Positions 13,396 to 20,581 of a DNA stretch of 33,773 nucleotides are shown here, one piece after another. The number at the start of each line of letters is the position of its first letter. The first letter of the stretch is position 1. The position numbers were made by a program, and so were the translations under genes. The stretch lies in NCBI GenBank assembly GCA_026388125.1, contig JAPLKJ010000256.1, forward strand, positions 1 through 33,773, in the 5' to 3' direction. The stretch is from Elusimicrobiota bacterium (lineage in GTDB: Bacteria > Elusimicrobiota > Elusimicrobia > Elusimicrobiales > UBA9959). The notes beneath the pieces are model-generated. The model searched no databases, had not been told where the DNA came from, and was given only the letters and a program-made list of their open reading frames with translations.

Positions 13396-13779
13396 TCATG
13401 CCTTTCCGCAGAAACGAGAAACTATAGACGTTAGCGTTTCCACTCGCGACGGCTTGTAAAGCACGTCCACCGCCCCGATAGCCGCGGCCGTCTCTCCCAT
13501 GTCGGGCAGGCCGGTAATGATGGCCACGGGGATACCGGCGAGCGCGGGGTCTTCCTGCTGGACCTTCCGGAATTCCCAGCCGGTCATTTCCGGCATCATC
13601 AGGTCGAGCAGGATAAGCCTGGGCGGCCGGGAGGTGCTTCTGAGATAGACCAGCGCTTCCTTGCCGTTGCCGGCGCAGGCCGTCTCGTAACCCTGCCCGG
13701 CCAGAACGGAACTGATCACATCGCAGGTGGTCTTGTCGTCGTCCACCACAAGAACAGGTGCCGCTCCCGCTGCGCTCAT
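13396..13779 (-). CDS. stand-alone response regulator receiver
   Basis: This 127-residue single receiver has the acidic pair in VVDDDKTT. The phospho-acceptor Asp is in LILLDLMMPEMTG, Thr in AIITGLP and Lys in VLYKPS. ATG 13779 is chosen, with GGGGGAT upstream. A TTG at 13806 that overlaps the stop of the preceding 31-residue ORF would add nine residues and is an alternative. This is the third orphan receiver in the window and again no kinase is adjacent. Confidence 0.88.
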   Translation of the reverse strand: MSAAGAAPVLVVDDDKTTCDVISSVLAGQGYETACAGNGKEALVYLRSTSRPPRLILLDLMMPEMTGWEFRKVQQEDPALAGIPVAIITGLPDMGETAAAIGAVDVLYKPSRVETLTSIVSRFCGKA

Positions 13780-13802
13780 AGGATTATCCCCCGCATCTCC
13801 GC

Positions 13803-13898
13803 TCAAAGAGCCTCTCCGGCCCCGGCCAGCACCGCCTGCACGGGCGTGTCCACATTACCGTTCTTGCGCAGGCTTCCGCTTTTACCGACAACTTTCAT
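13803..13898 (-). CDS. 31-residue small ORF heading the receiver operon
   Basis: The short basic peptide begins MKVVGKSGSLRKNG and ends AGAGEAL. It has a good promoter (TGGTATAAT, 13935-13940), a G-rich Shine-Dalgarno candidate (GGGGG before TTATC and the ATG), and lies immediately before the receiver gene, which begins 23 bases after its stop or overlaps it if TTG 13806 is used. These signals argue for real translation, either as a peptide or as a coupling leader. There is no recognisable family. Confidence 0.5.
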   Translation of the reverse strand: MKVVGKSGSLRKNGNVDTPVQAVLAGAGEAL

Positions 13899-13934
13899 GA
13901 TAACCCCCGGAAAAGCGTTGTGCGGCTTGTTAAA

Positions 13935-13943
13935 ATTATACCA
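13935..13943 (-). promoter_or_regulatory. extended -10 TGGTATAAT
   Basis: A perfect extended -10 on the minus strand, about 37 bases before the 31-residue ORF. It drives the small ORF, receiver and small membrane protein unit. Confidence 0.65.
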
Positions 13944-14006
13944 TCGAAACCGCCGCGGAAGGCAGCCGGGCGCCGGTTTAAATGCCGTAGAACAGTGAAC
14001 GTGCCC

Positions 14007-14035
14007 TGGCAAAAACGGCTCGCTAACGCTATAAT
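14007..14035 (+). promoter_or_regulatory. promoter of the 138-residue membrane protein gene
   Basis: TGGCAA (14007-14012), a 17-base spacer and TATAAT (14030-14035) are followed by AAGGAG and ATG 14054. Unlike the leaderless genes, this one has a short leader with a Shine-Dalgarno sequence. Confidence 0.6.
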
Positions 14036-14053
14036 TACAAAAGGAGAACGGCT

Positions 14054-14470
14054 ATGGATAAAGATCTCAACTTGGGCGAGCGGCACCAGACTCTGGCGGT
14101 CACCGTCCTCGCGTGGCTGTACATCGCCTTTTCGCTTTATGGGCTGGTCAGCGGCATCCGCCAGCTGTCCGCAGGCACGGCGATGAAGCTGACAAGCGCC
14201 CAGCCGAACCTGTATCTCGGGTTCAATCTGGCGGTCATGGTTTCGGCCATAGGCGCACTTCACCGCAACGACCTGGCCCGGAAGGCGCTTATCGGGCTCC
14301 TCTGCCTGGCGGCGGTCCTGAATGTCAGCATCCCGGTTTATATGGTGTTGGCCTTTAATGCCACCCTTCCCCTCTACAGCCTGAGCGTTGTGGCCGCCAC
14401 TCTCCTGTTCTTCGGCGCCGGCATCTATAAGTTCTCCCGCAAAAAAGTGATCAAAGAATTCAGGGCATAA
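14054..14470 (+). CDS. hypothetical four-helix membrane protein
   Basis: This 138-residue protein has four predicted membrane segments (residues about 15-37, 52-70, 77-96 and 103-124) and a basic C-terminal tail (FSRKKVIKEF). I recognise no family. The start is secure: TATAAT promoter, AAGGAG Shine-Dalgarno sequence and ATG in order. It is convergent with the O-antigen-ligase-like gene, with only a GGGGAC-type repeat between the two stop codons. Confidence 0.75.
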   Translation: MDKDLNLGERHQTLAVTVLAWLYIAFSLYGLVSGIRQLSAGTAMKLTSAQPNLYLGFNLAVMVSAIGALHRNDLARKALIGLLCLAAVLNVSIPVYMVLAFNATLPLYSLSVVAATLLFFGAGIYKFSRKKVIKEFRA

Positions 14471-14488
14471 AAAGCTCCCTCAAAAAAA

Positions 14489-14510
14489 GGGGACAGGCTG
14501 CTTTTTCCTA
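14489..14510. repeat. GGGGAC type 3 repeat at a gene 3' end
   Basis: GGGGACAGGCTGCTTTTTCC followed by TA lies between convergent genes. Its inner end supplies the TAG stop of the O-antigen-ligase-like gene on the minus strand. Confidence 0.55.
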
Positions 14511-16040
14511 TCTTCCCGGGGCCGCCCATCGCGCGCGGATCCGGGGATTGGCGGGGTCAAGCCACGCGGCGTGCCTGAACTGCGCGGCCGTATGCGCCTT
14601 GCTGTAGAGCGCCATCGCGGCCACCTGCCCTGAACTGCGCAGCACCGCGGCGGCCCCGGCTAACGCCACCGCTTGCACCAGCCTCCGCCGGACGAGCGGT
14701 GAGAGCTCCACATACCGCAGCGCCGGAGAAGCAGGCGCCAGCGCGCCGAAGAGCGCCCAAGCGATGAACGCGGGCGCCGGGAGCAGCAGCACGGCGTCGA
14801 AGCACGCGACGATAACGGTCACCACGAGCGCAGCCGCCAGCGCAAGCCCTTCCATATAGTCGTCCACGCCTGCAGCTTCTTCGGCCCGCCGCCAGGCCCC
14901 CCGCAGCAGCCCGAGGAACACCAGCAGGAGCGCGGCCAGCGCCGGCACCCCGCGCTCGGAAATTATAGCCATCCAGTCGCTGCTCGGCCACGGATTTATA
15001 GTCACCCCGCTATGGTAGTCGATAGAGCGATCGTAGTTCTCTACAAATTTCGGGTAAGCCACTGCCCAATTGCCCGGCCCGACGCCGAGCAGCGGATGCG
15101 CGGCCGCCATGCGCAGCGTTCTCCCGTACTGTACGAGGCGCCCGTGTCCGCTCCCCTTCTGGTAGTTCACCACGCCGGTAACCGTGTCGAGATACGGGGA
15201 ATCGCTCTTCCACTCCAGCGTGTTCGGCAGGGTCAGGGCGGCCAGGATCCCTGCCGCTACCGATAGCGCGATATACTTTATCCGCAGCGCAAGTTTAGGA
15301 TCGTTCCAGCGGCCGTGCGCGCGCCGGAGCCCGAACGCCAGCAGCCCAGCGCCCGCGGCCAGGCCCAGGTAGGCGGCGCGCGACCGTGAAAGCACCAGCG
15401 CGTCGGAGATGATGGCCAGCCCGACGGCGCAGGCGGCCACGGTAAAAGAGCGGCGCGCCTTGATGGCGACAAGCACCAGCGCCGGCGAGCAGATAACGAC
15501 GAGGTGCGCCATGAAGTTGCGGTTGCCGAAGGTCCCGCCGGGAACGCGGTGAAGGCTGAAAAGATCGCTTGTGAAGCCGTACGCCTGCGCAAGCGCGGCC
15601 GCGGCGCTGATCACCGCCGCCGCCGCGGCGGCAGCGACTATCGTACGGCGCGCGCCCGCCCCTGCGGCGGCGCGCGAGGCCCAGAACACTCCCGCGCCCG
15701 AGAGCGTTACCGCCAGCGCGCGCGTGGAAAGCCAGTGGTCGGCCGCGAACAGCGCGCTCGTGAAGCTGAGCGCCAGGTATAGCGCGAGCTGCAGATCTAT
15801 CCGGCTGAATTCGAACGCCTTTGCCCGGCGCAGGCCCAAGAGCGCCAGCGCGAGCGCGGCCGCGTGCAGCACCAGTTCTTTGGGGACCAGGAAACGGTCG
15901 AGATCGAACAGGCGGTAAGGCGTGGCCGCCAGCACCACCATGATGGCGCCGGCGACTAGCAGAAGGCGGTCGGCAAAACGATCGTTCCTGTCTGTATTTG
16001 GAACGCTTGCTAAAATGGCTGATTGCGCCGTGGATCCCAT
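14508..16040 (-). CDS. O-antigen ligase / polymerase (Wzy_C) family membrane protein
   Basis: This 510-residue polytopic protein has about a dozen hydrophobic segments. Two Wzy_C landmarks are visible: GGTFGNRNFMAHL in the middle and the large periplasmic loop with LLGVGPGNWAVAYPKF and an SSDWMAIISERGVPAL segment. Members polymerise or ligate glycans on the periplasmic face. No other glycan-assembly gene is nearby, so its substrate (lipopolysaccharide, exopolysaccharide or glycoprotein) is open. The very Ala-rich helices reflect the GC content. The ATG follows TAGAAT by seven bases with no Shine-Dalgarno sequence, and the TAG stop lies in a repeat. Confidence 0.85.
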   Translation of the reverse strand: MGSTAQSAILASVPNTDRNDRFADRLLLVAGAIMVVLAATPYRLFDLDRFLVPKELVLHAAALALALLGLRRAKAFEFSRIDLQLALYLALSFTSALFAADHWLSTRALAVTLSGAGVFWASRAAAGAGARRTIVAAAAAAAVISAAAALAQAYGFTSDLFSLHRVPGGTFGNRNFMAHLVVICSPALVLVAIKARRSFTVAACAVGLAIISDALVLSRSRAAYLGLAAGAGLLAFGLRRAHGRWNDPKLALRIKYIALSVAAGILAALTLPNTLEWKSDSPYLDTVTGVVNYQKGSGHGRLVQYGRTLRMAAAHPLLGVGPGNWAVAYPKFVENYDRSIDYHSGVTINPWPSSDWMAIISERGVPALAALLLVFLGLLRGAWRRAEEAAGVDDYMEGLALAAALVVTVIVACFDAVLLLPAPAFIAWALFGALAPASPALRYVELSPLVRRRLVQAVALAGAAAVLRSSGQVAAMALYSKAHTAAQFRHAAWLDPANPRIRARWAAPGR

Positions 16041-16047
16041 TGAGAAT

Positions 16048-16058
16048 ATTCTAGCAAA
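16048..16058 (-). promoter_or_regulatory. extended -10 TTTGCTAGAAT, seven bases before the ATG
   Basis: On the minus strand TTTGCTAGAAT is followed by ATTCTCA and ATG 16040. The same TTTGCTAGAAT occurs upstream of the genes at 27998 and 32311, and TTTGCTAAAAT upstream of 22683. Confidence 0.65.
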
Positions 16059-16186
16059 TGGAACTATACGGCCCGGGCGCTTACCTTTGTACCCATAGCC
16101 TTCCGGGTCTTTCGGTACTGTCTGAGCGGCGGGAATAGTCTTAAAATAACTGCAGGGCCCTTAGCGGCCGATCTACGGAGGATAAA

Positions 16187-16888
16187 ATGAGAAAAACCGC
16201 ACTGTTCATTCTTGCCTTTACTTTTTCCGCCGGCGCCTACGCCGCTGAACTCAACAGGATGTGTGCCAAGGATATAAAAACCAGTTTCCCCGCCGCCGTG
16301 CCCTCCCCCTTCATTACAAAAGCGTATACGCCGACGTCCGCGGCCTCTGCCTGCGAAACAGCGCTGGCCAAGAGCCTCGATTTCAGGCCCACCATTTTCC
16401 GCGACGCCAAAGGCCAGCCTCTGCGCGGTTTCGAGAAAAGTTACTATACAGAGTACGGCCCCATGCTGGTAGCGCTGGTGCTGCAGACCAGCAAGGAAGC
16501 TTATTATTATTACGAGGATTGCGACATCTGCGCCGAAATAGATAAATGCGACCTTAAGACCGGCGCCATCAGCCGCGTAGTAGCGGCGCATTCCGCCGGT
16601 TGCCAGGACATAGCCCCCTTTGCCGCCGGCGCGGTATATAACGCCTGCGCCAAGCCCGAACCTGCCTGCTCCAGAGTGGGAGAGGCCGTACGGATACCGG
16701 ACGAATGCTGCTCGAAGACCGCGGAGCCGGCCTACGGCGGGGAAATGGTGTGCGTTGAAGCGCCGCCCCCCGCTAATTCCACCTGCGCGAAGATCGGCGA
16801 CGCCGTACGGATACCGGACGAGTGCTGCTCGAAGACCGCGGAGCCGGCCTATGGCGGCGAGATGCAGTGCATAGAAGCGGCCCGCTGA
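16187..16888 (+). CDS. secreted Cys-rich protein with a duplicated 39-residue unit
   Basis: This 233-residue protein has a Sec signal peptide (residues 1-19, ending AYA). The first 155 residues are a Cys-containing domain I do not recognise, with a CDICAEIDKC cluster. The end is two near-identical units sharing AVRIPDECCSKTAEPAYGGE, 39 residues apart. Each has four Cys, suggesting a small disulfide module. The ATG has a strong GGAGGATA Shine-Dalgarno sequence, and TTAAAATAAC upstream is a candidate -10. It ends at a bidirectional terminator. Confidence 0.75.
   Translation: MRKTALFILAFTFSAGAYAAELNRMCAKDIKTSFPAAVPSPFITKAYTPTSAASACETALAKSLDFRPTIFRDAKGQPLRGFEKSYYTEYGPMLVALVLQTSKEAYYYYEDCDICAEIDKCDLKTGAISRVVAAHSAGCQDIAPFAAGAVYNACAKPEPACSRVGEAVRIPDECCSKTAEPAYGGEMVCVEAPPPANSTCAKIGDAVRIPDECCSKTAEPAYGGEMQCIEAAR
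16661..16877 (+). repeat. tandem duplication, 117-base period, two copies, inside the secreted Cys-rich gene
   Basis: Two copies start about 16661 and 16778. Over roughly 65 bases (from GTACGGATACCGGACGA) they differ at only a few positions, mostly synonymous. This indicates a recent duplication or gene conversion. Confidence 0.8.
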
Positions 16889-16910
16889 ACCAGGAACCTT
16901 TATAAACGCT

Positions 16911-16938
16911 AAAACCGCCGGGACAGCCCGGCGGTTTT
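16911..16938. terminator. bidirectional terminator
   Basis: AAAACCGCCGGG/CCCGGCGGTTTT lies between the convergent genes ending at 16888 and 16976. Confidence 0.85.
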
Positions 16939-16961
16939 GCATTTTTTTAATGCGCGGATCA

Positions 16962-16976
16962 GGGGACGCTGGGACT
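16962..16976. repeat. GGGGAC type 2-like fragment
   Basis: GGGGACGCTGGGACT adjoins the stop codon of the minus-strand gene. Its orientation is opposite to most other copies. Confidence 0.4.
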
Positions 16977-17500
16977 CAGGACTTGCGGGCGAAGGAGGAC
17001 CTTACCAGCCTGGCCAGGCGGGTGGGCAGGTCAGGGTAGCGTTTGCGCAGCTTTTCCATGTACTTTTCCCCCAGGGGGGTAAGTTCCCAGGTGCGCATAT
17101 TATAGAGCTGGTCCTTCGGAACCTTCGTGCGCACGGCTTCCAGAAAGGTAGTGTACACCATACGTTCTTCCAGCGCGTCCCGTTTATTGCCGCAGGTATC
17201 CGACACGGAGTAACACTTGAGCATCAGATAATGCCCGTCCGCATCTATTTTGCCCAGCGCGAAGGCCACGGAGCCGGGAAAGAAACGGTTGGGCTCGGCA
17301 GATTCTATCTCTCTGTTGCGCTCTGTGAACATTTCGATGAACCCCGTAGCAGCAAGGTTCCAGTTGAACGGAGGTATTTCCTCGGAGCCGGAGTCGGCCG
17401 CTTTGGCCGCAGCCCGGTGTTTTTTGGCGGCCTGGGCCGCGGGCGCAAGGGAAAGCAACAGACCGGAAAGAAGTACGAGGGATACGATATATAAGCGCAT
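16976..17500 (-). CDS. hypothetical secreted protein
   Basis: This 174-residue protein has a Sec signal peptide (residues 1-24, ending AQA). A Lys/Ala-rich linker follows, then a mixed alpha/beta region with two Cys (LKCYSVSDTCG) and a basic C-terminus (LARLVRSSFARKS). No family is recognised. No Shine-Dalgarno sequence precedes ATG 17500; the AT-rich upstream region has several -10-like hexamers, so the leader is short or absent. Confidence 0.65.
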   Translation of the reverse strand: MRLYIVSLVLLSGLLLSLAPAAQAAKKHRAAAKAADSGSEEIPPFNWNLAATGFIEMFTERNREIESAEPNRFFPGSVAFALGKIDADGHYLMLKCYSVSDTCGNKRDALEERMVYTTFLEAVRTKVPKDQLYNMRTWELTPLGEKYMEKLRKRYPDLPTRLARLVRSSFARKS

Positions 17501-17584
17501 GATTTTGTAATTTAAGCTATATAAAAGCCGCTTGTCAACGAAAGAGGACGCTATAGGCCTTTTTTCCCGGAGCGGGTAGGTCTT

Positions 17585-17620
17585 TTGACACTTCAGGCCG
17601 GGGCTCGCTCGTGGTATACT
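17585..17620 (+). promoter_or_regulatory. candidate promoter with TGGTATACT extended -10
   Basis: TATACT (17615-17620) is preceded by TGG. A perfect TTGACA lies 24 bases upstream, too far for standard spacing, so the extended -10 is the more credible element. CAGGGG lies between it and ATG 17641. Confidence 0.5.
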
Positions 17621-17640
17621 ATTACAGGGGAAAAGATATC

Positions 17641-17895
17641 ATGATCAGATCCAGTATTTTTCGCCGCGTCATCACGGTTGAAAACCACGACGAAAAGCCC
17701 GTAATTCCGCGCCCCGTTGTTCCTGCCGCACCTACCGAGCGCATACGGACCGTCTGGCGTTTTTCTCCCGCTACAAATCACATTTCCGCCCATACAGTGC
17801 ATCTCAAGGCCGGCACTACAGCGCCGGCGCATCAGCCGGAACCCGGCGCGAACGAAACGCCCCCGGGCGACGCCTTCCGCCGTTTCAGGCATTAA
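17641..17895 (+). CDS. hypothetical 84-residue protein
   Basis: This small protein has no signal peptide and no membrane segment. It is Pro/Arg/His-rich, with a PVIPRPVVPAAP stretch and a C-terminus ending RRFRH. It looks poorly structured and I recognise no family. Support comes from an extended -10, a CAGGGG Shine-Dalgarno candidate and its own terminator-flanked unit. An in-frame GTG at 17611 lies inside the promoter and is rejected. Confidence 0.5.
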   Translation: MIRSSIFRRVITVENHDEKPVIPRPVVPAAPTERIRTVWRFSPATNHISAHTVHLKAGTTAPAHQPEPGANETPPGDAFRRFRH

Positions 17896-17916
17896 CATCA
17901 TTCACGGTTCCCCGAT

Positions 17917-17945
17917 AAAACAAAACCGCCGGGCTTTCCCGGCGG
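17917..17945. terminator. CCGCCGGG-type hairpin between convergent genes
   Basis: AAAACAAAACCGCCGGG/CCCGGCGG with the T-tract on the minus-strand side. It lies between the genes ending at 17895 and 17995. Confidence 0.7.
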
Positions 17946-17963
17946 CTTCGCATGACTTGTTGA

Positions 17964-17992
17964 TAAATAGTCAATTAGTCAAATACGTCCCC
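17964..17992. repeat. GGGGAC type 1 half-element
   Basis: A half-copy (AAATAGTCAATTAGTCAAAT then ACGTCCCC) two bases from the stop of the repeat-protein gene. It differs from the 4356-4383 arm by a few bases. Confidence 0.65.
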
Positions 17993-17994
17993 TG

Positions 17995-19119
17995 TCATTT
18001 AAGCGGCGAAAGCTCCGTCTGCCCGCAAGCCGCGGAAGCGCGGTCCGAATAGCATACGGACGCCGAGCCGGGCGCGATAGAGACCAGGCCGGGTTCCAGC
18101 AGCCCGGCCGCGGCCTGCTCCAGCCCCTTGTTGGCGCCGGCGGTCTTGGCCGTGCCCATCGTCTGCTCTATCCACTGCAGTTTGAACATGGTGCTGATGC
18201 TGTCGGGCGCGCCCCAAAGCTGCTGGTAGTAAGGGAACTGCGTATTGTAGGCCGCTCCCACCATGCGCGTAAGGGTTTCTATCCCGTCGCCCTGCTGGCC
18301 GTAGGGGTTCATGGAACCGTCCGGGTTGTACCAGGTGTTCGCGCCGCCGAGCGCGTACTTGCCGTTAGGATATTTCCAGGAGCCCGCGTCTGAGTACGCC
18401 GGGCCCACATAGGCGAAACCGCCGCCCGGGTACCTCCAGGATTGCTTGTCCTGGTAGTATTCACCTACGTAAGCGAATTTTCCGTTAGGCCAGCGCCACG
18501 AGCCCTTGTCGGCGTAGGCTTCGCCCACGAAAGCGAAAGAGGTGCCAGGATATCTCCAAGACCCTTTGTCCTGGTAATTCGGCCCCACAAAGGCGAAGTT
18601 GCCGTTCGGATACCGCCAGGACTGCCTGTCCTGGTAATATTCGCCCACGTAGGCGTATTTCCCGTTGGGATATTTCCACGACCCCTTATCCGCGAATTCC
18701 GGGCCGACGAACGCTACCTTCCCGTCGGGATATCTTACGGTCTGGACAGGCTCCGCGCGGAAGCTGCAGATGAAGCTGACGAAATTCCCCGTCTCATCCG
18801 AAATATCGGCGCCGGCAAGGCGGGAGAGCAATTCCATATTGCGGGCGTCCTGGCATTTCTGATACATGCCCGGCTGAGGCCAGGGCTGGTTGCCGGGACC
18901 GCCGGGATGATGGCCGGGGCCGGGAGGAGGGAACTGATGCTGGCCCGGGCCGGGCTGCGCGTGCTCATGGGAGGGCGCCGCGGGAGCGGCCACTTTTACT
19001 CCGGCGATATTTGAAACATTCAGGCGAGCCTCGAACGAACCGCCCGCGGCGTCCGCCGCCAGGCAGGACCCGGCCGAAACGAACGCGATAAGACCCGCTA
19101 TACCTATAATATTTTTCAT
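17995..19119 (-). CDS. secreted protein with 20-residue W-Y-P-N-G tandem repeats
   Basis: This 374-residue protein has a Sec signal peptide (residues 1-21). A Pro/Gly/His-rich low-complexity stretch covers residues 45-85. Six full units of exactly 20 residues run from residue 129 to 248, followed by a partial seventh. A typical unit is RYPNGNFAFVGPNYQDKGSW. Conserved positions are Tyr/Trp-Pro-Asn/Gly, Phe/Tyr-Ala-Phe/Tyr-Val-Gly, Tyr-x-Asp and Ser-Trp. The pattern resembles MORN-type beta-hairpin repeats but does not match the MORN consensus. The C-terminal 115 residues are a separate helical region. The function is unknown; surface binding is a guess. The Shine-Dalgarno sequence GAGGT and a TATAGT -10 candidate are present. 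Confidence 0.8.
   Translation of the reverse strand: MKNIIGIAGLIAFVSAGSCLAADAAGGSFEARLNVSNIAGVKVAAPAAPSHEHAQPGPGQHQFPPPGPGHHPGGPGNQPWPQPGMYQKCQDARNMELLSRLAGADISDETGNFVSFICSFRAEPVQTVRYPDGKVAFVGPEFADKGSWKYPNGKYAYVGEYYQDRQSWRYPNGNFAFVGPNYQDKGSWRYPGTSFAFVGEAYADKGSWRWPNGKFAYVGEYYQDKQSWRYPGGGFAYVGPAYSDAGSWKYPNGKYALGGANTWYNPDGSMNPYGQQGDGIETLTRMVGAAYNTQFPYYQQLWGAPDSISTMFKLQWIEQTMGTAKTAGANKGLEQAAAGLLEPGLVSIAPGSASVCYSDRASAACGQTELSPLK
18343..18735 (-). repeat. coding tandem repeat, 60-base period, about 6.5 units
   Basis: The DNA encodes residues 129-259 of the secreted repeat protein, with an exact 20-codon register and no indels between units. Nucleotide divergence between units is moderate while the aromatic and Gly positions are kept, so selection maintains the motif. 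Confidence 0.85.
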
Positions 19120-19264
19120 TATTACCTCGCACCCCGCACTTTACTATAGAAATTGTAACAAGTGAGACGGCCGGAGCGATAAGGCCAAGGGCCCAGGCGC
19201 CCGTCTTCTTTCGCCTTGCCGCCAGGTAGGCCTTTCGTCCCCCTGCTCTATATTTTCCCGCCGA

Positions 19265-19294
19265 TAAAAAAACCGCCGGGCCTCCCCGGCGGTT
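19265..19294 (-). terminator. intrinsic terminator of the DUF3592-like gene
   Basis: On the minus strand: ACCGCCGGGG, loop, CCCGGCGG, then seven T residues. It follows the gene ending at 19342. Confidence 0.85.
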
Positions 19295-19318
19295 CAGAAT
19301 TATTCAGCGTTTTCAGTC

Positions 19319-19342
19319 ATCGAGTTATCGTGCAGCGTCCCC
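19319..19342. repeat. GGGGAC type 2 half-element
   Basis: The minus strand reads GGGGACGCTGCACGATAACT then CGAT, immediately after the stop of the DUF3592-like gene. A closely similar copy occurs at 20631-20654 and a diverged one at 31501-31528. Confidence 0.65.
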
Positions 19343-19815
19343 TATTCATTCTTTGCAGCAGAACACCCGTCAACTATCAGCAGACATCCGGCGCAACCAG
19401 CCACCGCCAGGAAAAATACGCCCATGCGCCAATCCTTCGGTTCGGGGCCGTCCAGCCTGGAACGCCGCGGCTCGTCCGGATTATAGCGAACCGTTACCGG
19501 CAGGCCTTCCGGATATTTTTGGGAAAGGGCGTTGGCGCCAGCCCAGCCTACGCCGAAAAAACTGTTGTCGTTTATTTCGGTCCTGGCATGATACTTGTCA
19601 TAAACGTATTCGACATAGATCCTGCAGCCGCCCTTGCTGTTTCTGGAGCAGTCGTTCCAGGAGCGCGTGATCACGCCTTTTGCTATGGGCCAGCCCCGGC
19701 TTCGCTTGTAATTCTTCACGTCGTTGTACACGTTGAAGGCGAAGAGCAGGAATAGGACCGGGACCAAGTACATTCCCGCCTTTAAGATCCTGCTGCCGGC
19801 CTGGCTGTTATCCAT
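19342..19815 (-). CDS. DUF3592-like membrane protein
   Basis: This 157-residue protein has an N-terminal membrane helix (residues about 12-30). A beta-rich domain with WPIAKGVITRS...VEYVYD...YPEGLPVTVRYNPDEPRRS follows, then a second helix near the C-terminus. That layout, including the YNPxxP segment, matches DUF3592 proteins, whose function is unknown. The start is well defined: TATAAT, CAGGAG, ATG 19815. It is followed by a GGGGAC repeat and then a clear terminator. Confidence 0.75.
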   Translation of the reverse strand: MDNSQAGSRILKAGMYLVPVLFLLFAFNVYNDVKNYKRSRGWPIAKGVITRSWNDCSRNSKGGCRIYVEYVYDKYHARTEINDNSFFGVGWAGANALSQKYPEGLPVTVRYNPDEPRRSRLDGPEPKDWRMGVFFLAVAGCAGCLLIVDGCSAAKNE

Positions 19816-19912
19816 TAAAGACTCCTGTTTTTCACCATTATAAGAACAAAGGGTTTTCCGTGAGATCGGAACGTCAGCAGCGTTCCCTTTCCCGGACAGC
19901 GGTAACTCTTAT

Positions 19913-20581
19913 TCAATTGCATGAGAGCAATTCGGGCCGCAAAGAGCGATCGCAATACGGCCTGCGGGTGCAGGCCGGGTCCGGGTAAGACCGGGCTCCG
20001 CAGCGGCAGACTGTTCCCGGTAAAGGATAACGCGGACAAAGCCCCTCTTTCAGCCGCTCCAGGTCCTTCCGGGCATTGGAGCATTCCACGGCGGTATATT
20101 TCCACAGCATGCCGTGGGCCAGGAATCTGGCCGGCAGGGCGAATACACTTGCAAGCTGCCGGCTGCCTGCCGCAAGCGCCTCTTCACGGGCGGAGATAGA
20201 CGGCAGAGTGCCCGCCTTACGACAGGAGTGCATTGCATTATTTATGTGGAAACCAAGACCGTAAACAAAAAAGCAGGTAATAAAAAGCAGCAGACTGACG
20301 CCGCAGATAACGAGGGTGCGGAGTTTCGGGCCTTTTTCGCCGGCCTTCCGGCAGTATTCCTCAAAAGCTTGCCAGCCCTCGTAAAGCCCATAGAGAAAAG
20401 CCACCAGGCAGGCTCCCAGCGGAAGCGCCAGGAGCCTTACGAACGGCCTGAGCTGAACCGCGCCGACCGCGTCTTTAAGCGAATCTATCAATATCAACAG
20501 CAGTATCGCTGCGCCCGGCGCTGCTGTGACCTTTGCCAGCCAGGGGATACTCCGGATCATGTCGGCGGCTTTTTTATACAT
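19913..20581 (-). CDS. hypothetical membrane protein with Cys-rich C-terminus
   Basis: This 222-residue protein has three hydrophobic segments (residues about 18-33, 45-67 and 88-112). A soluble C-terminal half contains eight or more Cys, with a tail of C-R-C, P-A-C and Y-C-D. No family is recognised. Overlapping frames on both strands are shorter and lack membrane character. There is no Shine-Dalgarno sequence before ATG 20581; the region just upstream is a stem-loop of the GGGGAC type 2 repeat. Confidence 0.6.
   Translation of the reverse strand: MYKKAADMIRSIPWLAKVTAAPGAAILLLILIDSLKDAVGAVQLRPFVRLLALPLGACLVAFLYGLYEGWQAFEEYCRKAGEKGPKLRTLVICGVSLLLFITCFFVYGLGFHINNAMHSCRKAGTLPSISAREEALAAGSRQLASVFALPARFLAHGMLWKYTAVECSNARKDLERLKEGLCPRYPLPGTVCRCGARSYPDPACTRRPYCDRSLRPELLSCN

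What the first reader, a model, noticed from the sequence alone, without database searches (positions are those of the whole stretch)
17995..19119. Secreted protein built on an exact 20-residue aromatic repeat
Six gap-free units with the pattern [RK]-[YW]-P-x-G-x3-A-[FY]-V-G-x2-[YF]-x-D-x2-S-W and a partial seventh, after a Pro/Gly/His-rich stalk. It looks like a beta-hairpin repeat related in style to MORN but with a different signature. It may be a new repeat family used in surface binding.
Basis: partly seen in the sequence, partly recalled or inferred. Interest (0 to 1): 0.5.

Follow-up and report, generated by a model that had tools for sequence, protein, structure and literature searches.

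The report
Exported β-hairpin repeat protein, unnamed family
An uncultured Elusimicrobia bacterium makes an exported protein built from a repeated 20-residue aromatic unit that probably forms an open ribbon of β-hairpins; it belongs to a small family with no name in the libraries searched, and its binding partner is unknown.

Summary
The minus-strand ORF 17995-19119 encodes 374 aa with six gap-free 20-aa units (residues 129-248) and a partial seventh; 65 of 120 positions match at lag 20, against at most 23 in 10,000 shuffles. The window protein has no significant Pfam, NCBIfam, PHROGs or PDB-sequence match. Selection keeps it (dN/dS 0.124 overall, 0.065 in repeats). Relatives are few: 5 of 340 Elusimicrobiota genomes, itself included and one distant, and 2 of 368 genomes in the phylum of a Bacteriovoracaceae MAG. 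More distant kin with shorter units are on Acaryochloris plasmids. AlphaFold2 gives a hairpin-like array between helical caps; the nearest solved architectures are TCP10 of CPAP, radial-spoke sheets and OspA, at low Z of 4-5. Best reading: an exported, capped, open single-layer β-hairpin scaffold presenting repeated aromatic and basic side chains for multivalent binding; ligand unknown. It is not MORN_2 by score. Kinship with choline-binding repeats is not shown: tests point both ways.

The parts
17995..19119 (-). Whole gene: 374-aa exported repeat protein (P0001)
   Evidence: ORF and translation; dN/dS 0.124 against the 96%-identical relative L018
19054..19119 (-). Probable Sec signal peptide, residues 1-22
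   Evidence: By eye from the sequence; no predictor run
18868..18981 (-). Pro/Gly/His-rich stalk, residues 47-84
   Evidence: 25 of 38 residues are P, G or H; 13-15 of 38 in L019, L024, L020
18766..18867 (-). N-terminal helical hairpin cap, residues 85-118, with Cys89 and Cys118
   Evidence: Two helices in both AlphaFold2 models; Cys spacing 27-33 in the seven proteins measured. A disulphide is inferred
18376..18735 (-). Six 20-residue units, residues 129-248
   Evidence: per-position conservation over 27 units; strands at the same two places in each unit
18343..18375 (-). Partial seventh unit, residues 249-259
   Evidence: strand in model
18310..18333 (-). Terminal W-Y-N-P-D-G motif, residues 263-270
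   Evidence: WYYP[ND] stands at this place in L019, L020, L024, L030; short strands in the model
18157..18285 (-). C-terminal two-helix cap, residues 279-321, around LQWIEQTM
   Evidence: Helices in both models; aligned with lower identity in L020 and L030
17998..18156 (-). C-terminal tail, residues 322-374, with two further Cys (356, 365), loosely kept
   Evidence: dN/dS 0.56 over residues 326-374; Cys positions; absent in L019, L020, L024

Best explanation
It is an exported scaffold and binding protein. After signal cleavage, a Cys-bridged helical hairpin caps one end of an array of about eight β-hairpins and two helices cap the other. Each 20-residue unit is strand (W-K/R), short loop (Y-P-N-G-x), strand (Y-A-F/Y), linker loop (V-G-x-x-Y-x-D-x-G-S). 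Successive hairpins continue one open, single-layer sheet of the kind seen in the TCP10/G-box domain, MORN arrays and OspA. The repeated aromatic and Lys/Arg side chains partly stack on each other to hold the sheet, and partly form a periodic surface that binds an extended polymer by many weak contacts: a glycan, cell-wall strand or Pro-rich peptide. Shown: the units, the conserved ends, selection and the family. Predicted: helices and strands. Inferred: export, disulphide, strand pairing into one sheet, binding and the class of ligand.
For: Two AlphaFold2 models with different lead sequences (but the same six proteins) give the same pattern, two strands per unit with helices at both ends: pLDDT 83.7 for the window protein, 86.8 for L019. 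The second-look aligner puts TCP10 of CPAP first for both (Z 5.3), with radial-spoke chains (Z 5.0 and 4.3; MORN proteins by recall) and OspA (about 4) near the top. Viral-library Foldseek lists four named MORN proteins among 35 rows, best E 0.088. W20, S19, D16, A8, G5, P3 and Y2 are kept in 25-27 of 27 units from five proteins. In P0001, 31 of 120 array residues are aromatic. The repeats evolve under strong constraint (dN/dS 0.065). In two other genomes the gene sits among genes for proteins with leaders (by eye): trypsin-like proteases (both), YkuD L,D-transpeptidases and a polysaccharide deacetylase (G021), a chagasin-type inhibitor (G155). The TCP10 domain shows that such a sheet can bind Pro-rich peptide through aromatics (PMC3776556, passages).
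Against: Only one of five models was confident for the window protein and two of five for L019. No Foldseek match reaches E 0.001, and all Z values are below 8, which the tool calls common; rmsd to TCP10 is 11.9-13.3. PDB Foldseek ranks choline-binding proteins and designed proteins first (E 0.09-0.23), and NCBIfam choline-binding models match L020 at 1.9e-8. No coordinates were available, so strand pairing was not read. The exported-gene neighbourhood of G021 and G155 is not found in the window. Nothing tests binding.
Confidence: 0.45

Rival explanations
1. It is a cell-wall-binding ββ-solenoid like the pneumococcal choline-binding repeats: 20-residue hairpins coil into a left-handed solenoid, and aromatic pockets between neighbouring units bind a cationic or sugar group on a surface polymer.
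For: Same period of about 20, hairpin plus linker, aromatic-rich (PMC4929436, passages). Choline-binding entries make 13 of 40 and 16 of 45 rows of the weak PDB Foldseek lists. NCBIfam models of PspC and PspA match L020 at 1.9e-8 and 3.1e-7, L019 at 0.005 and 0.002; PspC matches P0001 at 0.12. None of nine column-permuted L020 arrays hit PspC or PspA. The published consensus fits the unit profile better than most shuffles of it: 14 of 2000 reach ungapped, 2 of 300 gapped. Acaryochloris P0002 has Choline_bind_1 at 0.15.
Against: The nine permuted arrays gave chance matches of like strength to unrelated models (2.9e-8 and 1.5e-6), so such E-values carry little weight for this kind of sequence; the real array alone scored 7.4e-6. 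Against the real Cp-1 lysin repeats, 44-130 of 1000 permuted arrays score as high, and profile comparison gives probability 0.3%. No Pfam choline-binding model appears for the six members scanned at E 10.
Confidence: 0.2
2. It is a divergent MORN_2-type (YwqK-like, name recalled) repeat protein with the usual, still unclear, roles of that family.
For: The Acaryochloris relative P0002 scores 26.3 bits with MORN_2 (E 6.3e-6), just under the cut-off of 29.6; L025 has E 0.01. MORN-type sheets are near the top structurally.
Against: P0001 has no MORN match at E 10 as a full protein and 7.2 as a fragment. The own genome's best MORN_2 match, L042, itself below the cut-off, aligns no better than to permuted controls (123-634 of 1000 reach) and 0.2% in profile comparison. 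The published MORN consensus fits no better than its shuffles (158 of 300 reach). GxG and YEGEW motifs are absent from the unit consensus.
Confidence: 0.12
3. It is a structural or protective element, such as a spacer or coat component, without a specific ligand.
For: Unit number is nearly constant (six to seven plus a terminal motif), as a fixed-length spacer would be. Trypsin-like protease genes are neighbours in G021 and G155, so a protease-resistant part is imaginable.
Against: Conservation of aromatic and basic positions over long divergence is more than a spacer seems to need, though these residues may only hold the sheet together.
Confidence: 0.2

Closest known systems
TCP10 domain / G-box of CPAP (PF07202, PDB 4BXP, 4BXR)
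   Same: Tandem hairpins with P-D-G turns in an open β-sheet; first in the structural second look for both models (Z 5.3; 145 and 140 residues aligned)
   Different: Centriole protein; sequence match only E 0.028-0.67 in this family and far below the cut-off of 36 bits; no Cys-bridged helical cap in the passages read
MORN repeats and MORN_2 (PF07661)
   Same: Hairpin plus linker loop with aromatic stacking; radial-spoke chains at Z 5.0 and 4.3
   Different: 23 residues with GxG and YEGEW motifs, absent here; sequence not above permuted controls
Choline-binding repeats (PF01473 and relatives)
   Same: About 20-residue hairpin-plus-linker, aromatic-rich; weak Foldseek and NCBIfam resemblance
   Different: Pneumococcal cell-wall modules in a ββ-solenoid; kinship not shown, tests point both ways
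Acaryochloris plasmid proteins P0002 and P0004 (WP_261891618.1, WP_261892547.1, hypothetical)
   Same: Leader by eye, two-Cys stretch (spacing 33), W-Y-Y-P-N-G hairpins; 0-4 of 1000 permuted arrays score as high
   Different: Units of about 15 residues, three and four of them after a leading D-W-G-N-G; C-terminal region not shown to be related

Membership tests
MORN / MORN_2 | Score over the Pfam cut-off for MORN_2 | tested here: not met
   P0001 none at E 10, fragment E 7.2 with 7.6 bits, cut-off 29.6
MORN / MORN_2 | GxG motif and YEGEW motif in a 23-residue unit | tested here: not met
   Unit is 20 residues, consensus without either motif; definition
MORN / MORN_2 | Hairpin array forming one sheet | tested here: inconclusive
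   Two strands per unit in the models, Z 4.3-5.0 to radial-spoke chains
TCP10 / G-box | Score over the Pfam cut-off for Tcp10_C | tested here: not met
   P0001 11.3 and 13.4 bits, L025 14.5, against 36
TCP10 / G-box | Extended open sheet of antiparallel strands, both faces exposed | tested here: inconclusive
   First structural match but Z 5.3 with rmsd 13.0 and 11.9
Choline-binding repeats | Match over the cut-off of a choline-binding model | tested here: not met
   No Pfam choline-binding model for six members at E 10; NCBIfam PspC/PspA at most 33.5 bits against whole-protein cut-offs of 700 and 850
Choline-binding repeats | Sequence similarity beyond shared period and composition | tested here: inconclusive
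   Against: 44-130 of 1000 permuted arrays reach the score with Cp-1 lysin, hhalign 0.3%. For: 14 of 2000 and 2 of 300 shuffles of the consensus reach its fit; none of nine permuted arrays hit PspC/PspA
Choline-binding repeats | Left-handed ββ-solenoid with inter-repeat aromatic pockets | tested here: inconclusive
Family of this protein (Cys-capped YPNG-hairpin proteins; my name) | Leader, C-x(26-32)-C, then W-x-Y-P-x-G units | tested here: met
   Seven proteins measured; L018 not measured there but has both Cys in the alignment; L030 lacks its N-terminus. L025 and Acaryochloris supported by profile and permutation tests

The most novel reading that the evidence does not exclude
A so far unnamed superfamily of exported bacterial proteins, spanning Elusimicrobiota, Bdellovibrionota and Cyanobacteria, in which a disulphide-closed helical hairpin nucleates an open sheet of W-x-Y-P-N-G hairpins. 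The linker length is elastic (about 15 to 20 residues per unit), and the sheet serves as a multivalent aromatic binding strip outside the cytoplasm: a bacterial counterpart of the TCP10 proline-recognition sheet.
Probability: 0.25. Interest if true: 0.55.

Novelty: new variant of a known kind. Interest (0 to 1): 0.35.

Why it matters
Open single-layer β-sheets without a hydrophobic core are useful models for how repeat units alone hold a sheet together. A natural bacterial family with 15- and 20-residue versions of the same hairpin would let one ask what linker length changes, and would add a family that the libraries searched here do not hold. It is otherwise an orphan exported protein of unknown partner in uncultured bacteria.

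Tried and rejected
Rfam over the window at gathering scores: nothing. PDB by sequence with P0001, alignment A3, L020 and L019 at E 10: no meaningful match. PHROGs with P0001 and P0002: best 0.04. Phage records with P0001 at E 0.1: none. Viral contigs: 0 of 7 and 0 of 90 pattern stretches confirmed. Pfam DUF3185 matched L020 at 0.0013, 19.1 bits against 25.3: below cut-off, taken as chance.

Hits set aside. Escherichia plasmid and phage matches to L020 (4 and 2 records, E down to 3e-16): the two that I translated read -SLVAGRW- over and over, and the DNA of the one that I read is the heptamer CTGGTCG repeated; not relatives. The other four records were not read. Methylobacterium bullatum (E 2e-4): an ORF with a local repeat, set aside by eye. 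G047 match to L025 (3.1e-4): lies antisense to a 754-aa peptidase-like ORF (by eye). The 14 weak matches (E 6.9e-4 to 0.57): 11 lie within residues 1-111; not pursued. Variovorax 15-residue repeats (P0003): not above control (24 of 300; 46-121 of 1000).

Choline-binding kinship: pursued because NCBIfam gave 1.9e-8 for L020; lowered, not excluded, after the controls. MORN_2: rejected. Literature, in the held library only: no paper contains the strings WKYPNG, SWKYP, KYPNGKYA or WYYPNG; 'Elusimicrob' with 'repeat protein' and 'secreted' gave three papers, unrelated by listing; 'YPNG', 'repeat', 'secreted' gave two, unrelated by listing. Papers: PMC7725318 (passages and one section), PMC3776556 (passages), PMC4929436 (passages).

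Full report
What is there. The window lies in a 3.47-Mb, 311-contig genome; its nearest named relative is an uncultured Elusimicrobia MAG. The minus-strand ORF 17995-19119 encodes 374 residues. In order it has a probable leader (by eye), a stalk rich in Pro, Gly and His (25 of 38 residues), a stretch with Cys89 and Cys118, six contiguous 20-residue units from 129 to 248, a partial seventh, a W-Y-N-P-D-G motif, and a helical C-terminus. Lag-20 identity is 65 of 120 against a maximum of 23 in 10,000 shuffles.

The gene is real and old. Against the 96%-identical relative L018, dN/dS is 0.124 for the whole protein and 0.065 in the repeats; the tail (326-374) is loosest, at 0.56. Within the window's array the units are near saturation at synonymous sites (pS 0.51 to 1.03 over 15 pairs), so the likeness of units is kept by selection and not by recent copying. 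In L019, units 3 and 5 are 98% and units 4 and 6 are 95% identical in DNA, which looks like a recent two-unit duplication. Transcription is open: a terminator-like site lies at 19295-19270 between this gene and the one upstream, but the scan found fewer such sites (2) than shuffles do (mean 3.7), and no promoter-like site just upstream of the gene. By eye a GC-rich inverted repeat followed by T-rich sequence lies past the stop near 17918-17947; the scan did not list it.

Who else has it. With the four-protein profile A1, 5 of 340 Elusimicrobiota genomes match at E 0.001, the window's own included: four over nearly the whole profile (window, G010, G021, G155) and one distant (G170). In the phylum of the Bacteriovoracaceae MAG UBA2428 (Bdellovibrionota by recall), 2 of 368 match: G340 (L020) and G616 (L030), which is cut by its contig end. 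A shallow pattern scan of the genome collection gave 3 confirmed loci from 29 stretches; G155 was not among them, so it is no census. Phyla beyond these two could not be searched with the profile. Caution on L020: GC falls from 0.64 to 0.50 just upstream of the gene, so an island or a joined contig is possible. More distant relatives with units of about 15-19 residues are L025 in G170 (hhalign 95%, E 4e-8, cap included) and two proteins on Acaryochloris marina plasmids (hhalign 95.7%, repeat region only). Against them 0 of 1000 and 0-4 of 1000 column-permuted arrays score as high. The two cysteines are 27-33 residues apart, with 8-12 residues to the first hairpin motif, in the seven proteins measured; L018, a near copy, was not measured, and L030 lacks that end.

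Fold. AlphaFold2 on residues 83-336 with six sequences gave pLDDT 83.7 and pTM 0.82, but only one of five models was confident. With L019 leading the same six proteins, two of five were (86.8 and 82.4). Both best models show two N-terminal helices, then two short strands per unit at the same places (around W-K/R and Y-A-F), and two C-terminal helices. Foldseek found nothing at E 0.001 in PDB or viral models; its weak PDB lists hold 13 of 40 and 16 of 45 choline-binding rows, its viral list four named MORN proteins of 35. The second-look aligner put TCP10 of CPAP first for both models (Z 5.3, rmsd 11.9-13.3 over its rows), with radial-spoke chains and OspA near the top. These Z values are low by the tool's own note. 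What those proteins share is an open, single-layer hairpin sheet, and I read the array that way.

Is it a known repeat? For P0001 Pfam gives only sub-threshold Tcp10_C (E 0.28 whole, 0.06 fragment) and a MORN_2 value of 7.2 on the fragment. The choline-binding idea deserved a real test: same period, hairpin plus linker, and NCBIfam PspC/PspA values of 1.9e-8 and 3.1e-7 for L020. Arrays with the 20 columns permuted alike in all units keep period and composition. None of nine hit PspC or PspA, but two hit unrelated models at 2.9e-8 and 1.5e-6, while the unpermuted array alone scored 7.4e-6, so such values are within chance for this kind of sequence. Against the repeats of the Cp-1 phage lysin, 44-130 of 1000 permuted arrays score as high and profile comparison is negative. 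One test leans the other way: only 14 of 2000 (ungapped) and 2 of 300 (gapped) shuffles of the published consensus reach its fit to the unit profile. Verdict: it may work like a choline-binding array; membership is not shown and not excluded.

How it may work. The strongest functional hint is setting, and it is weak. In G021 and G155 the gene lies in a run of mostly same-strand genes for proteins with leaders (by eye): trypsin-like proteases in both, two YkuD L,D-transpeptidases, a polysaccharide deacetylase and an FGE-domain protein in G021, a chagasin-type inhibitor in G155. This setting is not found in the window, where the neighbours are a DUF3592 protein, an M48 peptidase and two unassigned proteins with leaders by eye. 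The TCP10 precedent shows that aromatics on such a sheet can hold Pro-rich peptide. I commit to a capped, exported, multivalent binding strip at 0.45, the ligand being open.

Novelty. A small family without a name in Pfam, NCBIfam or PHROGs as searched, built on a known kind of architecture. The held literature contains none of four signature strings. Not categorically new.

Noticed in passing
window 16187-16888 (+): Exported-looking 233-aa protein with two near-identical Cys-rich segments around VRIPDECCSKTAEPAYGGEM; no Pfam match at 0.001.
   Followed up: partly
L043 4549-7659 and 16469-17341 (G021): Four paralogous trypsin-like exported-looking proteases, three in tandem, near the repeat-protein gene; two checked with Pfam, two by BLAST likeness.
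   Followed up: partly
L045 about 13720-20000 (G340): Sharp GC drop from 0.64 to 0.50 beside the relative's gene: genomic island or contig join in the UBA2428 MAG.
   Followed up: no
L040 2406-3023 (phage PhiR12_3) and L041 1504-1854 (E. coli plasmid): Annotated 'hypothetical proteins' that are a seven-residue repeat; in L041 the DNA is the heptamer CTGGTCG repeated. Probably not genes; the phage one carries a transporter note.
   Followed up: partly
L031 1402-1728 (Variovorax plasmid): Small exported-looking protein made almost wholly of 15-residue units such as GDTTYGPNGQTYQQI; similar in style but not above control.
   Followed up: partly
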